From Kosakonia sacchari SP1 (lineage in GTDB: Bacteria; Pseudomonadota; Gammaproteobacteria; Enterobacterales; Enterobacteriaceae): a stretch of DNA of 64,000 nucleotides. The translations under genes and the position numbers were made by a program. The notes under the pieces are model-generated. The model did no database searches. It saw only the letters and a program-made list of their open reading frames with translations, and was not told the origin of the DNA. Position 1 is the stretch's first letter. Each line of letters starts with the position of its first letter. The DNA is taken from assembly GCF_000300455.3 (NCBI RefSeq), contig NZ_CP007215.2, forward strand, positions 3,038,001 to 3,102,000. Direction: 5' to 3'. Below, in pieces: positions 22,876-39,397 of the stretch.

Positions 22876-23877
22876 TCACCAAAGATGTGTCTGTTTTTCG
22901 ATCGTTCCCCACCTGAAGTACATGTCACAAGCCATCAGAAAATCCCGATGCCAAAGCGCATAAATATGCAAATAGTTAAAGCCGATACAGGGTAAAAAGC
23001 AGACCAGGAAATAGATCTCAAACCAGAGTTGCCATCCGGACCATGCCAACAGCATGCTAACGAGAATGATCCATACAAACTCTATGATCAGTAACAGGAT
23101 TATTCTCGCCCAAAAAGGTTTGTCATAGAATGCAGGCCATGGCAATGAAACTGAAAAATAAAAGTCAATTTCTTTTAGAAATAATCTACCGAGAAAGATA
23201 TAACGTTTTGACAAACGAGTAAAAAGCAAATTCATCATCAAAACAATGCAACACAAAATAAACATTGCAACCACTACTCTGACAGAGAAAACGCCAGCCA
23301 GCAATGAAAAATCCGTCTCACGTTTCAAAGGAGAAACAGTCAGTAAATTTAAAATAATGCCAAGAGAAAGGGAGGCAAAAATATAGCGATAAAGATGCTT
23401 ATATTTCACCTTATCAACTGCTGCAGTTGCAACTTGCTTAATATAACTGGTTCTTAAGATCCGAAACACGATGTACATAAAGATCGGTAAAATCGCCAGC
23501 AAAGGAATCAGTATATACATCGGTAAGTGAAGAAAAAAAAACCCTTGTATAATTACCCCAAGGACGACAGTAAATAAAACACTGGCAACGAAAGGATGAG
23601 AACACCATGTTTCCATCCTTCCGAGTTTCTTTCCAGGAAAAAAACTGAAATCGATTGCTTTAGTAACACATTTATATGCCCAAAAAGCTTTAAGTTCGTA
23701 AATTGAGCTAAAGAGTAAAATGCTTGCTATACCACTGAGATAATAAACGTCACTGTGATTTAATTCATAATCATTATTTTTCCAATAAAAACCAATCATA
23801 ATAAAAACGACAAGGAAGAGAAAGGGTAGTATTTTTTTGTCCTGAATACGGATAAATTTGAGATAGTCTGGAATCAC
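22876..23877 (-). CDS. Polytopic membrane protein of unknown function, last gene of lipid cluster
   Basis: A 333-residue protein with about eight hydrophobic segments (near residues 16-33, 44-60, 97-117, 119-140, 163-180, 191-215, 255-280 and 284-305). I do not recognise a family. Aromatic residues and charged cytoplasmic loops with lysines (KKLGRMETW, KQVATAAVDKVKYKH) are visible, but there is no catalytic motif such as the MBOAT histidine region. It starts 10 bases after the malonyltransferase gene and ends the operon, so a membrane step such as product transfer, modification or self-protection is possible. That role is inference from position only. Confidence 0.65.
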   Translation of the reverse strand: MIPDYLKFIRIQDKKILPFLFLVVFIMIGFYWKNNDYELNHSDVYYLSGIASILLFSSIYELKAFWAYKCVTKAIDFSFFPGKKLGRMETWCSHPFVASVLFTVVLGVIIQGFFFLHLPMYILIPLLAILPIFMYIVFRILRTSYIKQVATAAVDKVKYKHLYRYIFASLSLGIILNLLTVSPLKRETDFSLLAGVFSVRVVVAMFILCCIVLMMNLLFTRLSKRYIFLGRLFLKEIDFYFSVSLPWPAFYDKPFWARIILLLIIEFVWIILVSMLLAWSGWQLWFEIYFLVCFLPCIGFNYLHIYALWHRDFLMACDMYFRWGTIEKQTHLW

Positions 23878-23887
23878 AATAGCACCA

Positions 23888-24820
23888 TTAAATTGAAAAT
23901 AATCCCCTGCAATGCAATATCATCTCAGGGTCAAAGTTTACGAAATCCTTCAATACTTTCCCAAGGTAAGCTTTATTGCTAATTTCGACGAATAAGACTG
24001 GCCTGTTATTGGTTAAAAAAAACGACATTGAATCCGCCCATTTAACCGTATGTGTCAAATGCAAGGAGAGGTTTTCTTTGATCTCTGCCGGTTCATTTTC
24101 TGCCTTGCCCGTCACATTCATGACGACATCATGTTGGGGAGGACAAAATTCAAAATCAGACAGGTATTGGCGCATGAAGGGTACGCCTTCGGCCATCAAA
24201 CGCGTATGCCAGGCACCGCTTACGCCAAGCTTCACTGTCTCATGACCGTCAGCACGGAGCTGACGAGAGAATTCATTAAGCGCAGCTATTGTTCCGCCGA
24301 CAACTTGTTGTCGGCAGCTATTATCACAACTGATATCGATTGGTAGATCAGATTCAATAATCATTTGACTGAGAGCCGTATGATCGATGTCTTTCACCGC
24401 CAACATATAACCTTTGTATTTTCTACTAACCTCATCCATCACGTGCGAGCGAAGCTGAATCAGGCGAAACAAATTTTCTAGTGTTACTGCTCCGGCAGCA
24501 TAAAGAGCACTATATTCCCCGACGCTGTGCCCGCATGAACCTATAACGTTTGTGTTATCAAATTTGTCTTTACAAAGGGTATAGAGCGTTGCATTCATCG
24601 CGGTTACAGCAATTTGTTGCACTGTTGTCTGGATCAAGCGATTCATTGGCCCCTTTAAACATAATCGCCTGATATCCATACCCGAAATATCACTGGCGCA
24701 ATCCCAAATGGCACGTGTTGTTTGATTTATATTCCATAAATCAGCCCCCATTCCGATAACAGGATTCCCCTGGCCAGCGAAAAGAAAAACAACAGGCTGT
24801 GATGTACTATTTATATCCAT
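23888..24820 (-). CDS. Malonyl-CoA:ACP acyltransferase (FabD-like)
   Basis: Loads malonyl units from CoA onto the cluster's acyl carrier protein. At 310 residues it has the FabD length. FAGQGNPVIGMG marks the N-terminus, and the nucleophile elbow is GHSVGE with S99. The second catalytic residue is H205 in SGAWHTRLM. The usual arginine that binds the malonyl carboxylate is probably R124 in LRSHVM. It is near the 3' end of the operon, far from the other acyl-chain enzymes. That the cluster has its own malonyltransferase instead of relying on FabD suggests a self-contained pathway. CylD of the streptococcal cyl operon belongs to the same family. Confidence 0.92.
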   Translation of the reverse strand: MDINSTSQPVVFLFAGQGNPVIGMGADLWNINQTTRAIWDCASDISGMDIRRLCLKGPMNRLIQTTVQQIAVTAMNATLYTLCKDKFDNTNVIGSCGHSVGEYSALYAAGAVTLENLFRLIQLRSHVMDEVSRKYKGYMLAVKDIDHTALSQMIIESDLPIDISCDNSCRQQVVGGTIAALNEFSRQLRADGHETVKLGVSGAWHTRLMAEGVPFMRQYLSDFEFCPPQHDVVMNVTGKAENEPAEIKENLSLHLTHTVKWADSMSFFLTNNRPVLFVEISNKAYLGKVLKDFVNFDPEMILHCRGLFSI

Positions 24821-37749: not shown

Positions 37750-37753
37750 AAGG

Positions 37754-39397
37754 TTACAGTTGATAAGTTATATTAAAATTAGATATAAATTGATCTTCAA
37801 CGAGGCCAGCCGGGGATATTAAGGGAGCTGATAAAGAAATATCATATCCTAGTGACTTAATTGTTCCCTTAACCCCAATGATTGACCCAATTATCCTTTT
37901 CCCATCCAAAGCATTTTGTGGGTATATCTCACCTGCAATCTGTCCATAATCCGCACCAAAATATAATTCAGAGTTATAATCCCCGATAGGGAAATGGAAT
38001 GTATTCTGGATATAAAATCCTTTATTTCCGTCTAATCCCGTACTGGTTTCATAGCCTCTAACGTTCCATCGACTGCCGATTGTAAATTGATCTTGTAGTG
38101 TTAACGATGATTGCGAAAATTGAGCACCCATATTTAATTCATAATAATAGAGCAAAGGTTCGGCATTGAACCATTTAACATAGTTTGTATTCAGATTAAA
38201 AACTTGGCTTGTAGAACTCACATCCCCTGACACCATATCTGGTGTTTTCTCACCACCCAACCAAGTCATAAAACGCTGCCAGCTAAGGGAGGAGTCTAAC
38301 GTCGCATCCTGGAGATTTTGTTTAAAATTCAACCCAAGGCGCAGATTACCCATATCTCGCTCTTGCAGCGCTAAATCCACGCCACCCAATTGATACGCAA
38401 CTCTACGCCTTAATATTTCTACGCTCCCGGTTATTTTTTTATCCGTATTGCGGAAAAGGGTTCGGGTTCCTTTTAAACTAAAGTATTGATTTTTTCCCTG
38501 ATAGTTTAAATCCCAATAACTCAGTCCTACACGCTGGCGAGACATGCTACTACTGTAGAAAACTTCATAATCCCAAAAACCTACAGGTATGCTATAAAAG
38601 GTGCTGATGCTTTTATATCCGCCAGTTGTACTGCTGGTACCCGCCAAATAAAAAAGATCGCCAAGCCTTGCAGAGTTGTACAAATAACCTGAAATACCTG
38701 TAAGTATTTTTCCTGTACTTCTATCACCCCAGTTATTATACGTCGTCCTGATATTCCATAATTTATTACGATTAGTGTTGATCACAATATCGCTATCGCC
38801 GTCGCGATTTCCTGGCACGATATTGATCTTAACATCAACACCTGGAACTTTCTGCAAATTCTCCAGCCCCTGTTCAATATCTCGCAGATTAAGAATATCA
38901 CCTGATGTAAATGGCAGGATCCAACTTCTGATGTCATCTTTTGCAATGATTACCTTATTGATCCTTCCTGTTGAAATAGTTAGCTGTAACTTTTTTCCCT
39001 TTAAGTTTTGTACAGGAATATTCACGCGAGTTGTTACATATCCGGCCTTTATATAATAATCCTGCAAGTACGTCGCAACATATTCAATACCTTTCGTACC
39101 AAGGCAACTGTTCGAGATCTCATCCTTTATATTTCGAATCATTTTATTATCCAAAAATTCGTTTTCGAGGATAAGTTCTACAATAGGATAACAATCCTTT
39201 TCAGAGGGCAATTTAAAATCTATAACATTTTTATCTTCAACTTTCGAGAAAACATCTTTTTTATCAATCCGGTTTTCCAGAGCGGTGTTGTTATCATTTT
39301 TTTGCTGTTCTTTGGCTAGTCGTTCTAACTGAGTATCAGCATACGCACGAGCACTGCATAGCAAAATGAAAGCTAAGAAATAAAATTTATTTTCCAT
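37754..39397 (-). CDS. TpsB/ShlB-FhaC-type outer-membrane transporter
   Basis: The first gene of the cluster, about 547 residues from the ATG at 39397 (MENKFYFLAFILLCSARAYA, a signal peptide; GAGG a few bases upstream). The reading to 39463 adds a leader that spoils the signal. A coiled, lysine-rich linker is followed by POTRA-type domains (VELILENEFLDNKMIRN, YYIKAGYVTTRVNIP). A 16-strand barrel of the ShlB family comes last, including the VRGYE motif in RWNVRGYETSTG and LYFGADYGQIAG. These proteins normally export a large TpsA partner; none is encoded here. It may instead help the product leave the cell or insert it in the outer membrane, which would be unusual. Confidence 0.9.
   Translation of the reverse strand: MENKFYFLAFILLCSARAYADTQLERLAKEQQKNDNNTALENRIDKKDVFSKVEDKNVIDFKLPSEKDCYPIVELILENEFLDNKMIRNIKDEISNSCLGTKGIEYVATYLQDYYIKAGYVTTRVNIPVQNLKGKKLQLTISTGRINKVIIAKDDIRSWILPFTSGDILNLRDIEQGLENLQKVPGVDVKINIVPGNRDGDSDIVINTNRNKLWNIRTTYNNWGDRSTGKILTGISGYLYNSARLGDLFYLAGTSSTTGGYKSISTFYSIPVGFWDYEVFYSSSMSRQRVGLSYWDLNYQGKNQYFSLKGTRTLFRNTDKKITGSVEILRRRVAYQLGGVDLALQERDMGNLRLGLNFKQNLQDATLDSSLSWQRFMTWLGGEKTPDMVSGDVSSTSQVFNLNTNYVKWFNAEPLLYYYELNMGAQFSQSSLTLQDQFTIGSRWNVRGYETSTGLDGNKGFYIQNTFHFPIGDYNSELYFGADYGQIAGEIYPQNALDGKRIIGSIIGVKGTIKSLGYDISLSAPLISPAGLVEDQFISNFNITYQL

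What the first reader, a model, noticed from the sequence alone, without database searches (positions are those of the whole stretch)
22876..39397. Apparently undescribed 16-gene lipid (polyene-like) biosynthesis and export cluster in an enterobacterium
Seen: one uninterrupted leftward operon encodes ACP, AcpS, malonyltransferase, ketoreductase, dehydratase, an active KS fused to an inactive KS, two more degenerate KS-like proteins, a GcvT-like protein, an ABC exporter, a LolA-like protein, and two outer-membrane candidates including a TpsB. Known: type II systems with KS, CLF, KR and DH but no enoyl reductase make conjugated polyenes (aryl polyenes, granadaene). Inference: the cluster makes a polyunsaturated lipid and delivers it to or beyond the outer membrane. 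It is not a standard aryl polyene cluster: I see no ammonia lyase, AMP ligase, MMPL exporter or LPLAT acyltransferase.
Basis: partly seen in the sequence, partly recalled or inferred. Interest (0 to 1): 0.88.

Follow-up and report, generated by a model that had tools for sequence, protein, structure and literature searches.

The report
Conserved lipid-making and export gene cluster
This is a real, intact set of 16 genes, also found in E. coli O157 and other relatives, that looks built to make an unusual fatty chain and move it to the cell surface alongside one particular secreted protein; what it makes is still unknown.

Summary
The operon is real: 16 tightly packed - strand genes, 41% G+C (flanks 51-55%), under purifying selection in the 14 genes tested, catalytic residues intact, synteny conserved in the GTDB family. 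It is not undescribed: the E. [quoted passage not shown] My searches found no product or function in print. Three useful additions. (1) A secreted TpsA exoprotein accompanies the cluster in 16 of 16 family genomes carrying this cluster type and was found in 0 of 376 others at the same cut-off (set after seeing the scores; at most two candidates per genome scored). In the window's genome it lies 2.3 Mb away, and in three relatives also apart, yet is retained. (2) K-12 ymdE-ycdU are the remnant tail of this operon. (3) Like the granadaene cyl operon, it joins a GcvT-like gene to ACP, AT, KS, KR, DH and an ABC exporter; three KS-fold partners lack the usual KS active site. Polyene chemistry is not shown: a sister type carries a FabL-like reductase. 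Best reading: a dedicated type II acyl synthase with Lol-like export to the outer membrane, coupled to a two-partner-secretion exoprotein.

The parts
37754..39397 (-). TpsB-type outer-membrane secretion transporter (ORF open to 39463; likely start 39397 before a signal peptide)
   Evidence: Pfam ShlB 2.5e-58 plus POTRA_2 and POTRA_3; TpsA lies directly before it in 22 of 24 relatives of this type, not here
37342..37749 (-). AcpS-like phosphopantetheinyl transferase
   Evidence: Pfam ACPS 8.3e-17
36594..37376 (-). ketoreductase (FabG-like SDR)
   Evidence: Pfam; best NCBIfam 3-oxoacyl-ACP reductase, below its own cut-off; above the cut-off of the FabG subfamily NF009466
36024..36590 (-). FabZ-like dehydratase, H54 and E68 conserved 37 of 37
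   Evidence: Pfam FabA 3.7e-16, NCBIfam fabZ below cut-off, columns
35739..36020 (-). acyl carrier protein, DSV site, S50 in 36 of 36
   Evidence: Pfam PP-binding 1.5e-6, columns
34548..35708 (-). GcvT-like folate-domain protein; D94 (aligned with D96 of the T-protein chain 1woo; its catalytic role is recalled) kept in 37 of 38
   Evidence: Pfam GCV_T 8.7e-33, PDB alignment, columns
31888..34446 (-). active KS (C178, H310, H346 in 36 of 36, ORF numbering) fused to a chain-length-factor-like half with no conserved cysteine at the nucleophile elbow (columns 618-625: one C, in 1 of 36 sequences)
   Evidence: Pfam, columns; ORF runs to 34494, likely start 34446
30672..31883 (-). degenerate KS: position 159 is C in 29 of 37, S in 7, N in 1; by motif spacing the second active-site His is Tyr in 37 of 37
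   Evidence: Pfam, NCBIfam best AmcF 4e-15, below cut-off, columns
29617..30660 (-). family-specific protein with thiolase/KS fold but no recognisable KS active site; no Pfam or NCBIfam family
28962..29669 (-). ABC ATPase of a LolD/MacB-type exporter
   Evidence: Pfam ABC_tran 9e-36
28322..28978 (-). predicted exported protein with two invariant Cys (36 of 36)
   Evidence: no Pfam family; one NCBIfam chance-level match; columns
27011..28315 (-). FtsX/MacB-type permease, LolC/E-like
   Evidence: Pfam FtsX 8.9e-18; NCBIfam lolCE 92.6 bits against cut-off 362
26217..27002 (-). LolA-like periplasmic carrier
   Evidence: Pfam LolA_like PF17131 8.4e-37
24832..26220 (-). predicted outer-membrane beta-barrel, no family
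23888..24820 (-). FabD-like malonyl transferase; GHSxG, S99 and H205 in 20 of 20; the end of its E. coli orthologue survives as K-12 ymdE
   Evidence: Pfam 5.7e-28, columns
22876..23877 (-). YcdU polytopic inner-membrane protein (homologue of K-12 YcdU)
40017..40913 (+). divergent winged-helix/TM (ToxR-like) regulator, possible regulator of the operon
   Evidence: Pfam Trans_reg_C, one predicted TM; also divergent in L002, L003, L012
40906..41388 (+). small predicted membrane-anchored partner of the ToxR-like protein
   Evidence: adjacency and one predicted TM, conserved in L002, L003, L012

Best explanation
A dedicated type II fatty-acid/polyketide assembly line. AcpS activates the ACP; the FabD-like enzyme loads malonyl; the active KS, with its fused chain-length-factor half, extends the chain; KR and DH process it; two further KS-fold proteins shape, cyclise or hand over the chain; and the GcvT-like enzyme does a folate-linked or aminomethyl-type step on the head group or its precursor. 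The finished acyl product is anchored in the inner membrane (YcdU), pulled out by the LolCDE/MacB-like ABC pair, carried by the LolA-like protein and delivered to or through the outer membrane by the barrel. A TpsB-secreted beta-helical exoprotein (TpsA) is a functional partner on the surface. Shown: gene content, intact active sites, conservation, selection, TpsA co-occurrence. Inferred: order of steps, roles of GcvT, YcdU and the KS-like proteins, export direction, chain unsaturation, and how TpsA is involved.
For: Families and active sites. The window's type and the sister type share 15 genes; 13 of these are also in the one complete locus of a third type. TpsA at E <= 1e-150 is in the 16 family genomes with this type and was found in 0 of 376 others. 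In the genus the same 11 of 15 genomes have both; in 4 TpsA is apart from the cluster. The window's genome has two TpsA and two TpsB genes by Pfam; one pair is linked at about 3.49 Mb, which leaves the cluster's TpsB and the orphan TpsA at 723 kb. E. coli: cluster KS in 370, TpsA in 369 of 5426 genomes.
Against: No product known. Most of the TpsA co-occurrence follows from physical linkage; the unlinked cases are probably one event in one clade. The 1e-150 cut-off was set after seeing the scores, and one search scored at most two candidates per genome. Six of the 8 sister-type genomes whose two flanks were read have no TpsA beside the operon, so TpsA is not needed for the core pathway. Damaged copies exist: split ORFs in L047 (KS), L049 (barrel), L055 (29617-type protein), L060 (FtsX) and several in L070; L051 has no called ACP; G082 has a stop in GcvT, and the TpsA genes of G130 and G082 have stops.
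Confidence: 0.7

Rival explanations
1. The product is a (partly) saturated specialised fatty acid, not a polyene; enoyl reduction is done by host FabI, or by the FabL-like enzyme in the sister type.
For: The three sister-type SDRs scanned score best to NCBIfam FabL (162-194 bits, below the 328 cut-off); 11 of 11 sister-type loci have the extra SDR. Host FabI is reported to serve the cispentacin pathway (PMC10698177, passages). KS1 is about as close to E. coli FabF (31%) as to an aryl-polyene KS (32%).
Against: No second SDR inside the operon in the 12 full loci of the window's type; dedicated KR and DH; antiSMASH flagged an aryl polyene gene in the E. coli version (PMC9205054, passages).
Confidence: 0.4
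2. The cluster makes the acyl group of a lipid-modified or lipid-loaded TpsA: the Lol-like machinery and TpsB deliver a protein-lipid complex.
For: TpsA is retained even when apart from the cluster; LolC/E- and LolA-like transporters, whose best-known relatives move lipoproteins; the third type has TpsA beside AcpS with no TpsB detected there (L068); a TpsA lies 0.6-1.2 kb after YcdU in two sister-type genomes of one genus.
Against: No HlyC- or Lnt-type acyltransferase was hit among the 16 ORFs by Pfam or the 14 scanned with NCBIfam; no lipobox is evident in the 7 TpsA N-termini shown; OtpA is reported as a secreted protein of the OtpAB system (PMC5422565, passages).
Confidence: 0.25
3. A variant aryl polyene cluster.
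For: KS, KR, DH, ACP and LolA-like genes; antiSMASH 6.0 call on the E. coli version (PMC9205054, passages).
Against: No AMP ligase, MMPL or ammonia lyase in the 16 ORFs, whereas two proteins of the Sakai aryl polyene locus give AMP-binding and MMPL hits in the same library; both loci occur in Sakai.
Confidence: 0.1
4. A non-functional relic.
For: Low G+C; remnants in K-12 and many other E. coli; damaged copies in some relatives.
Against: dN/dS 0.03-0.15 in the 14 genes tested, intact reading frames and catalytic residues in the window.
Confidence: 0.03

Closest known systems
O-island 47 / S-loop 71 / s1-ST11 of E. coli O157:H7 and O55:H7
   Same: Same 16 genes in the same order, 45-81% protein identity; ends in YcdU
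   Different: TpsA sits in the operon in E. coli; there the O55:H7 locus ends near a tRNA-Ser before ghrA, here it lies near tRNA-Ser(TGA) and a YccA-like gene (that name is recalled). No product or function found in my searches
cyl operon (granadaene) of Group B Streptococcus and other Gram-positives
   Same: ACP, malonyl transferase, KS genes, KR, DH, ACP-activating enzyme, ABC exporter and, unusually, a GcvT-like gene (CylF, called universally conserved in cyl operons; PMC6985545, passages)
   Different: No glycosyltransferase, no recognised CylE; adds a LolA-like carrier, barrel, YcdU, two more KS-fold proteins and TpsB.
Aryl polyene clusters (E. coli Sakai ECs_4324-4342)
   Same: type II KS, KR, DH, ACP logic; a LolA-family carrier
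   Different: No aryl activation or MMPL exporter; separate locus in the same genome
LolCDE/LolA lipoprotein sorting
   Same: FtsX-type permease, ABC ATPase and LolA-like carrier
   Different: Scores far below the LolCE cut-off (92.6 against 362); own barrel
Cispentacin/coronafacic acid type II PKS (AmcF-AmcG)
   Same: A KS-like protein next to a motif-poor KS-fold partner (30672-31883 and 29617-30675); weak sub-threshold hits to AmcF, AmcE and AmcB
   Different: AmcF hit 56 bits against 325; no AMP ligase among the 16 ORFs
OtpA/OtpB two-partner secretion (E. coli O157:H7)
   Same: TpsB 48% identical to the E. coli one; orphan TpsA 70% identical to the E. coli TpsA. That this E. coli pair is OtpAB is recalled, not from a call
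   Different: Here the two genes are unlinked

Membership tests
Aryl polyene BGC | aryl starter supply (ammonia lyase and/or AMP ligase) | tested here: not met
   No such family in the 16 ORFs; positive control ECs_4331 hits AMP-binding
Aryl polyene BGC | MMPL-type exporter | tested here: not met
   ABC/FtsX instead; control ECs_4336 hits MMPL
Aryl polyene BGC | KS, KR, DH and ACP set | tested here: met
cyl (granadaene) operon | ACP, KS, KR, DH and GcvT-like core plus ABC exporter | tested here: met
   By family, not orthology; gene list from PMC6985545 (passages)
cyl (granadaene) operon | CylE acyltransferase | not testable with these tools
   No CylE sequence held; the only acyltransferase family hit in the 16 ORFs is the FabD-like one
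cyl (granadaene) operon | glycosyltransferase | tested here: not met
   None in the 16 ORFs; the source paper says CylJ is replaced by other glycosyltransferases in other cyl operons
cyl (granadaene) operon | polyene product | not testable with these tools
   Needs chemistry
Type II PKS/FAS with chain length factor | active KS plus KS-fold partner lacking a conserved nucleophile, with ACP | tested here: met
LolCE | curated LolCE score | tested here: not met
   92.6 against 362.45 bits
Two-partner secretion | TpsB with ShlB and POTRA domains | tested here: met
Two-partner secretion | adjacent TpsA | tested here: not met
   No TpsA match better than E 0.39 at 39001-40100; a TpsA lies at G000:C1:723079-726951
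O-island 47 cluster | 16-gene content and order | tested here: met
   L014; Sakai annotation

The most novel reading that the evidence does not exclude
A new kind of surface assembly: a dedicated synthase makes an acyl lipid that is loaded onto, or covalently attached to, a two-partner-secretion beta-helix exoprotein, using a private Lol-like route; granadaene-like chemistry has entered Gram-negative bacteria and been joined to type Vb secretion.
Probability: 0.2. Interest if true: 0.88.

Novelty: new variant of a known kind. Interest (0 to 1): 0.62.

Why it matters
A 16-gene locus carried by O157:H7 and by many other enterobacteria has no product assigned in anything I found. The TpsA association, the GcvT link to the granadaene operon and the K-12 remnant give direct tests of what the product is and what a TpsA of unknown function is for. 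The ymdE-ycdU pair reported in the specific core genome of phylogroup A mastitis E. coli (PMC4951805, passages) is explained as the surviving tail of this operon.

Tried and rejected
Aryl polyene membership was rejected. A KS tree with E. coli FabF, FabB, FabH and two aryl polyene KSs did not resolve KS1, and it warned of long branches. Near-identity search of E. coli genomes gave no match; the word-11 search found 370 genomes. No relative of the 29617-30675 protein was found outside the GTDB family in 369 class and 349 phylum genomes (at most five candidates scored per genome in the rows shown). No TpsA remnant upstream of TpsB. Barrel: no Pfam family above its cut-off in the results for 10 members, no PDB sequence relative at E <= 1, only generic porin matches. 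Second TpsA/TpsB pair of the genome: an ordinary linked pair. Induction of the E. coli region on spinach roots is stated in PMC9205054; the four terms I looked for in the main text of PMC4940412 showed no mention of it. Alignment A3 wrongly included a GcvT row (L003:10001-11161) and was not used. The NCBIfam scans covered 14 of the 16 proteins (not TpsB or the ABC ATPase).

Rows dropped: in the alignments, used again, ORFs under 0.7 or over 1.5 times the window protein's length were left out. One search used 39 of the 71 loci then held; L001 and L015-L045 were left out, mostly short stretches round single matches.

That something is not in print rests on searches of an open-access library only.
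Full report
WHAT IS THERE. The window (G000:C1:3038001-3102000, a 4.9 Mb genome) comes from a Kosakonia close to K. quasisacchari and K. pseudosacchari (GcvT 92% and 91% identical; the genus and species are inferred). On the - strand, 39397 down to 22876, sixteen ORFs follow with gaps of -53 to +53 nt: TpsB, AcpS, KR, DH, ACP, GcvT-like, KS-CLF fusion, a second KS-like protein, a 347-aa protein, ABC ATPase, a 218-aa exported protein, FtsX permease, LolA-like, barrel, FabD-like, YcdU. 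The cluster is 41% G+C against 55% (left, 1-19000) and 51% (right, 42001-64000). A ToxR-like regulator is divergent to it.

WHO HAS IT. In E. coli the KS-CLF occurs in 370 of 5426 complete genomes; 9 of the 15 rows listed are labelled O157:H7 or O55:H7. The O55:H7 and Sakai loci have the same 16 genes in order, with TpsA in front. In 392 genomes of the GTDB family, 29 have a GcvT relative at E <= 1e-40: 16 at 57-100% identity (type A, the window's type) and 13 at 37-45%. Eleven of the 13 are type B: no TpsA or TpsB found in front, and an extra SDR in 11 of 11; YcdU was found at the end in 8 of 8 whose downstream was read. Two (G093, G082) look like a third type; the one with a complete locus (L068) shows no LolA-like protein, barrel or TpsB, and has a TpsA beside AcpS. 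Of 12 type A loci long enough to hold all 16 genes (L014, L046-L056), 11 show all 16 labels; L051 lacks a called ACP. Split ORFs occur in L047, L049, L055, L060 and L070. The 347-aa family was not found outside the GTDB family in 369 class and 349 phylum genomes.

TPSA PARTNER. In 22 of 24 type A loci (window not counted) TpsA lies directly before TpsB; the two exceptions are Kosakonia, like the window. Yet the window's genome holds a TpsA, 70% identical to the E. coli one over its length, 2.3 Mb away with no TpsB beside it. In the genus, 11 of 15 genomes have the cluster and the same 11 have this TpsA (E <= 1e-60); in four it lies apart (megabases away on one contig in G000 and G1082, on different contigs of the drafts G1078 and G1079). 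In the family sample, at E <= 1e-150 TpsA is in the 16 type A genomes and was found in none of the other 376. That threshold was set after seeing a gap between 6e-157 and 4e-104, and one search scored at most two candidates per genome; at E <= 1e-60, 13 further genomes match more weakly, among them both third-type genomes and three of type B. The window's genome has two TpsA and two TpsB genes in all by Pfam. In E. coli TpsA is in 369 and the KS in 370 of 5426 genomes (I compared counts, not lists). Of 8 type B genomes with both flanks read, 2 (one genus) have a TpsA 0.6-1.2 kb after YcdU and 6 have none there. All 14 type B, third-type and window genomes examined have some TpsA and TpsB, but I did not measure how common that is in general. 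Linkage explains most of the co-occurrence; retention after separation is the informative part, and it may be a single event.

K-12 REMNANT. K-12 ymdE is 98% identical to the last 100 of 314 residues of the O55:H7 FabD-like protein, and YcdU is 98% identical over 328 aa; an IS3 element sits where the rest would be. ycdU DNA is in 2646 of 5426 E. coli genomes against 370 with the KS, so most ycdU carriers seem to have lost the rest.

MECHANISM. From the families: chain building on ACP, keto reduction and dehydration, membrane insertion, extraction by a LolC/E-like permease, periplasmic carriage by a LolA-like protein, an outer-membrane barrel (low-confidence model). That GcvT-like proteins are rare company for such genes is recalled; the granadaene cyl operons have one universally (CylF), and the authors of PMC6985545 suggest it feeds ammonia to ornithine synthesis (passages). 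That survey reports Gram-positive and Chloroflexi carriers. I could not compare sequences with CylF or CylE. Whether the chain is a polyene is open: no extra SDR in type A, a FabL-like one in type B (best match FabL in three of three scanned, below cut-off).

PRIOR ART. [quoted passage not shown] PMC8565820 (passages) describes OI-47 as z1528-z1556 with GrvA; PMC9205054 (passages) describes a 16-gene, 19-kb cluster, an antiSMASH aryl polyene call and induction on spinach roots; PMC5422565 (passages) lists OtpA with unknown function. I saw passages only, no whole papers. No product was found in the ten searches listed under Tried and rejected.

VERDICT. Real, intact, conserved, partly described, product unknown; the TpsA coupling, the cyl-like content and the K-12 remnant are the useful additions.

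Noticed in passing
L074:10545-11830 (K-12 ymdE-ycdU): K-12 ymdE and ycdU are the last two genes of this operon (ymdE only the end), next to an IS3 element; they had been reported in the specific core of mastitis E. coli (PMC4951805).
   Followed up: yes
L057:4580-8455: Orphan TpsA (1291 aa) in the window's genome, between a PstS-like gene and a PPTase-like gene followed by a large ORF resembling a condensation-domain synthetase (these three names are by eye).
   Followed up: partly
L060:2601-3353, L067:15917-16678, L065:2927-3685: FabL-like SDR between FtsX and the LolA-like gene in the sister cluster type.
   Followed up: partly
L059:6046-6834: An extra exported-looking 262-aa protein with a DUF6134 match in a sister-type operon, between the ABC ATPase and the KS-fold protein.
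   Followed up: no
L010:197-6196: Two tandem TpsA genes in front of TpsB in an Enterobacteriaceae MAG.
   Followed up: no
window:20447-21829 and 22202-22813: A GGDEF diguanylate-cyclase-like gene and a LuxR-type regulator flank the operon's 3' end; in K-12 the operon remnant also lies near a diguanylate cyclase (dgcT).
   Followed up: no
window:41603-41690: tRNA-Ser (TGA) near the operon's upstream side; in K-12 the remnant ends near serX (GGA), so two different tRNA-Ser sites.
   Followed up: no
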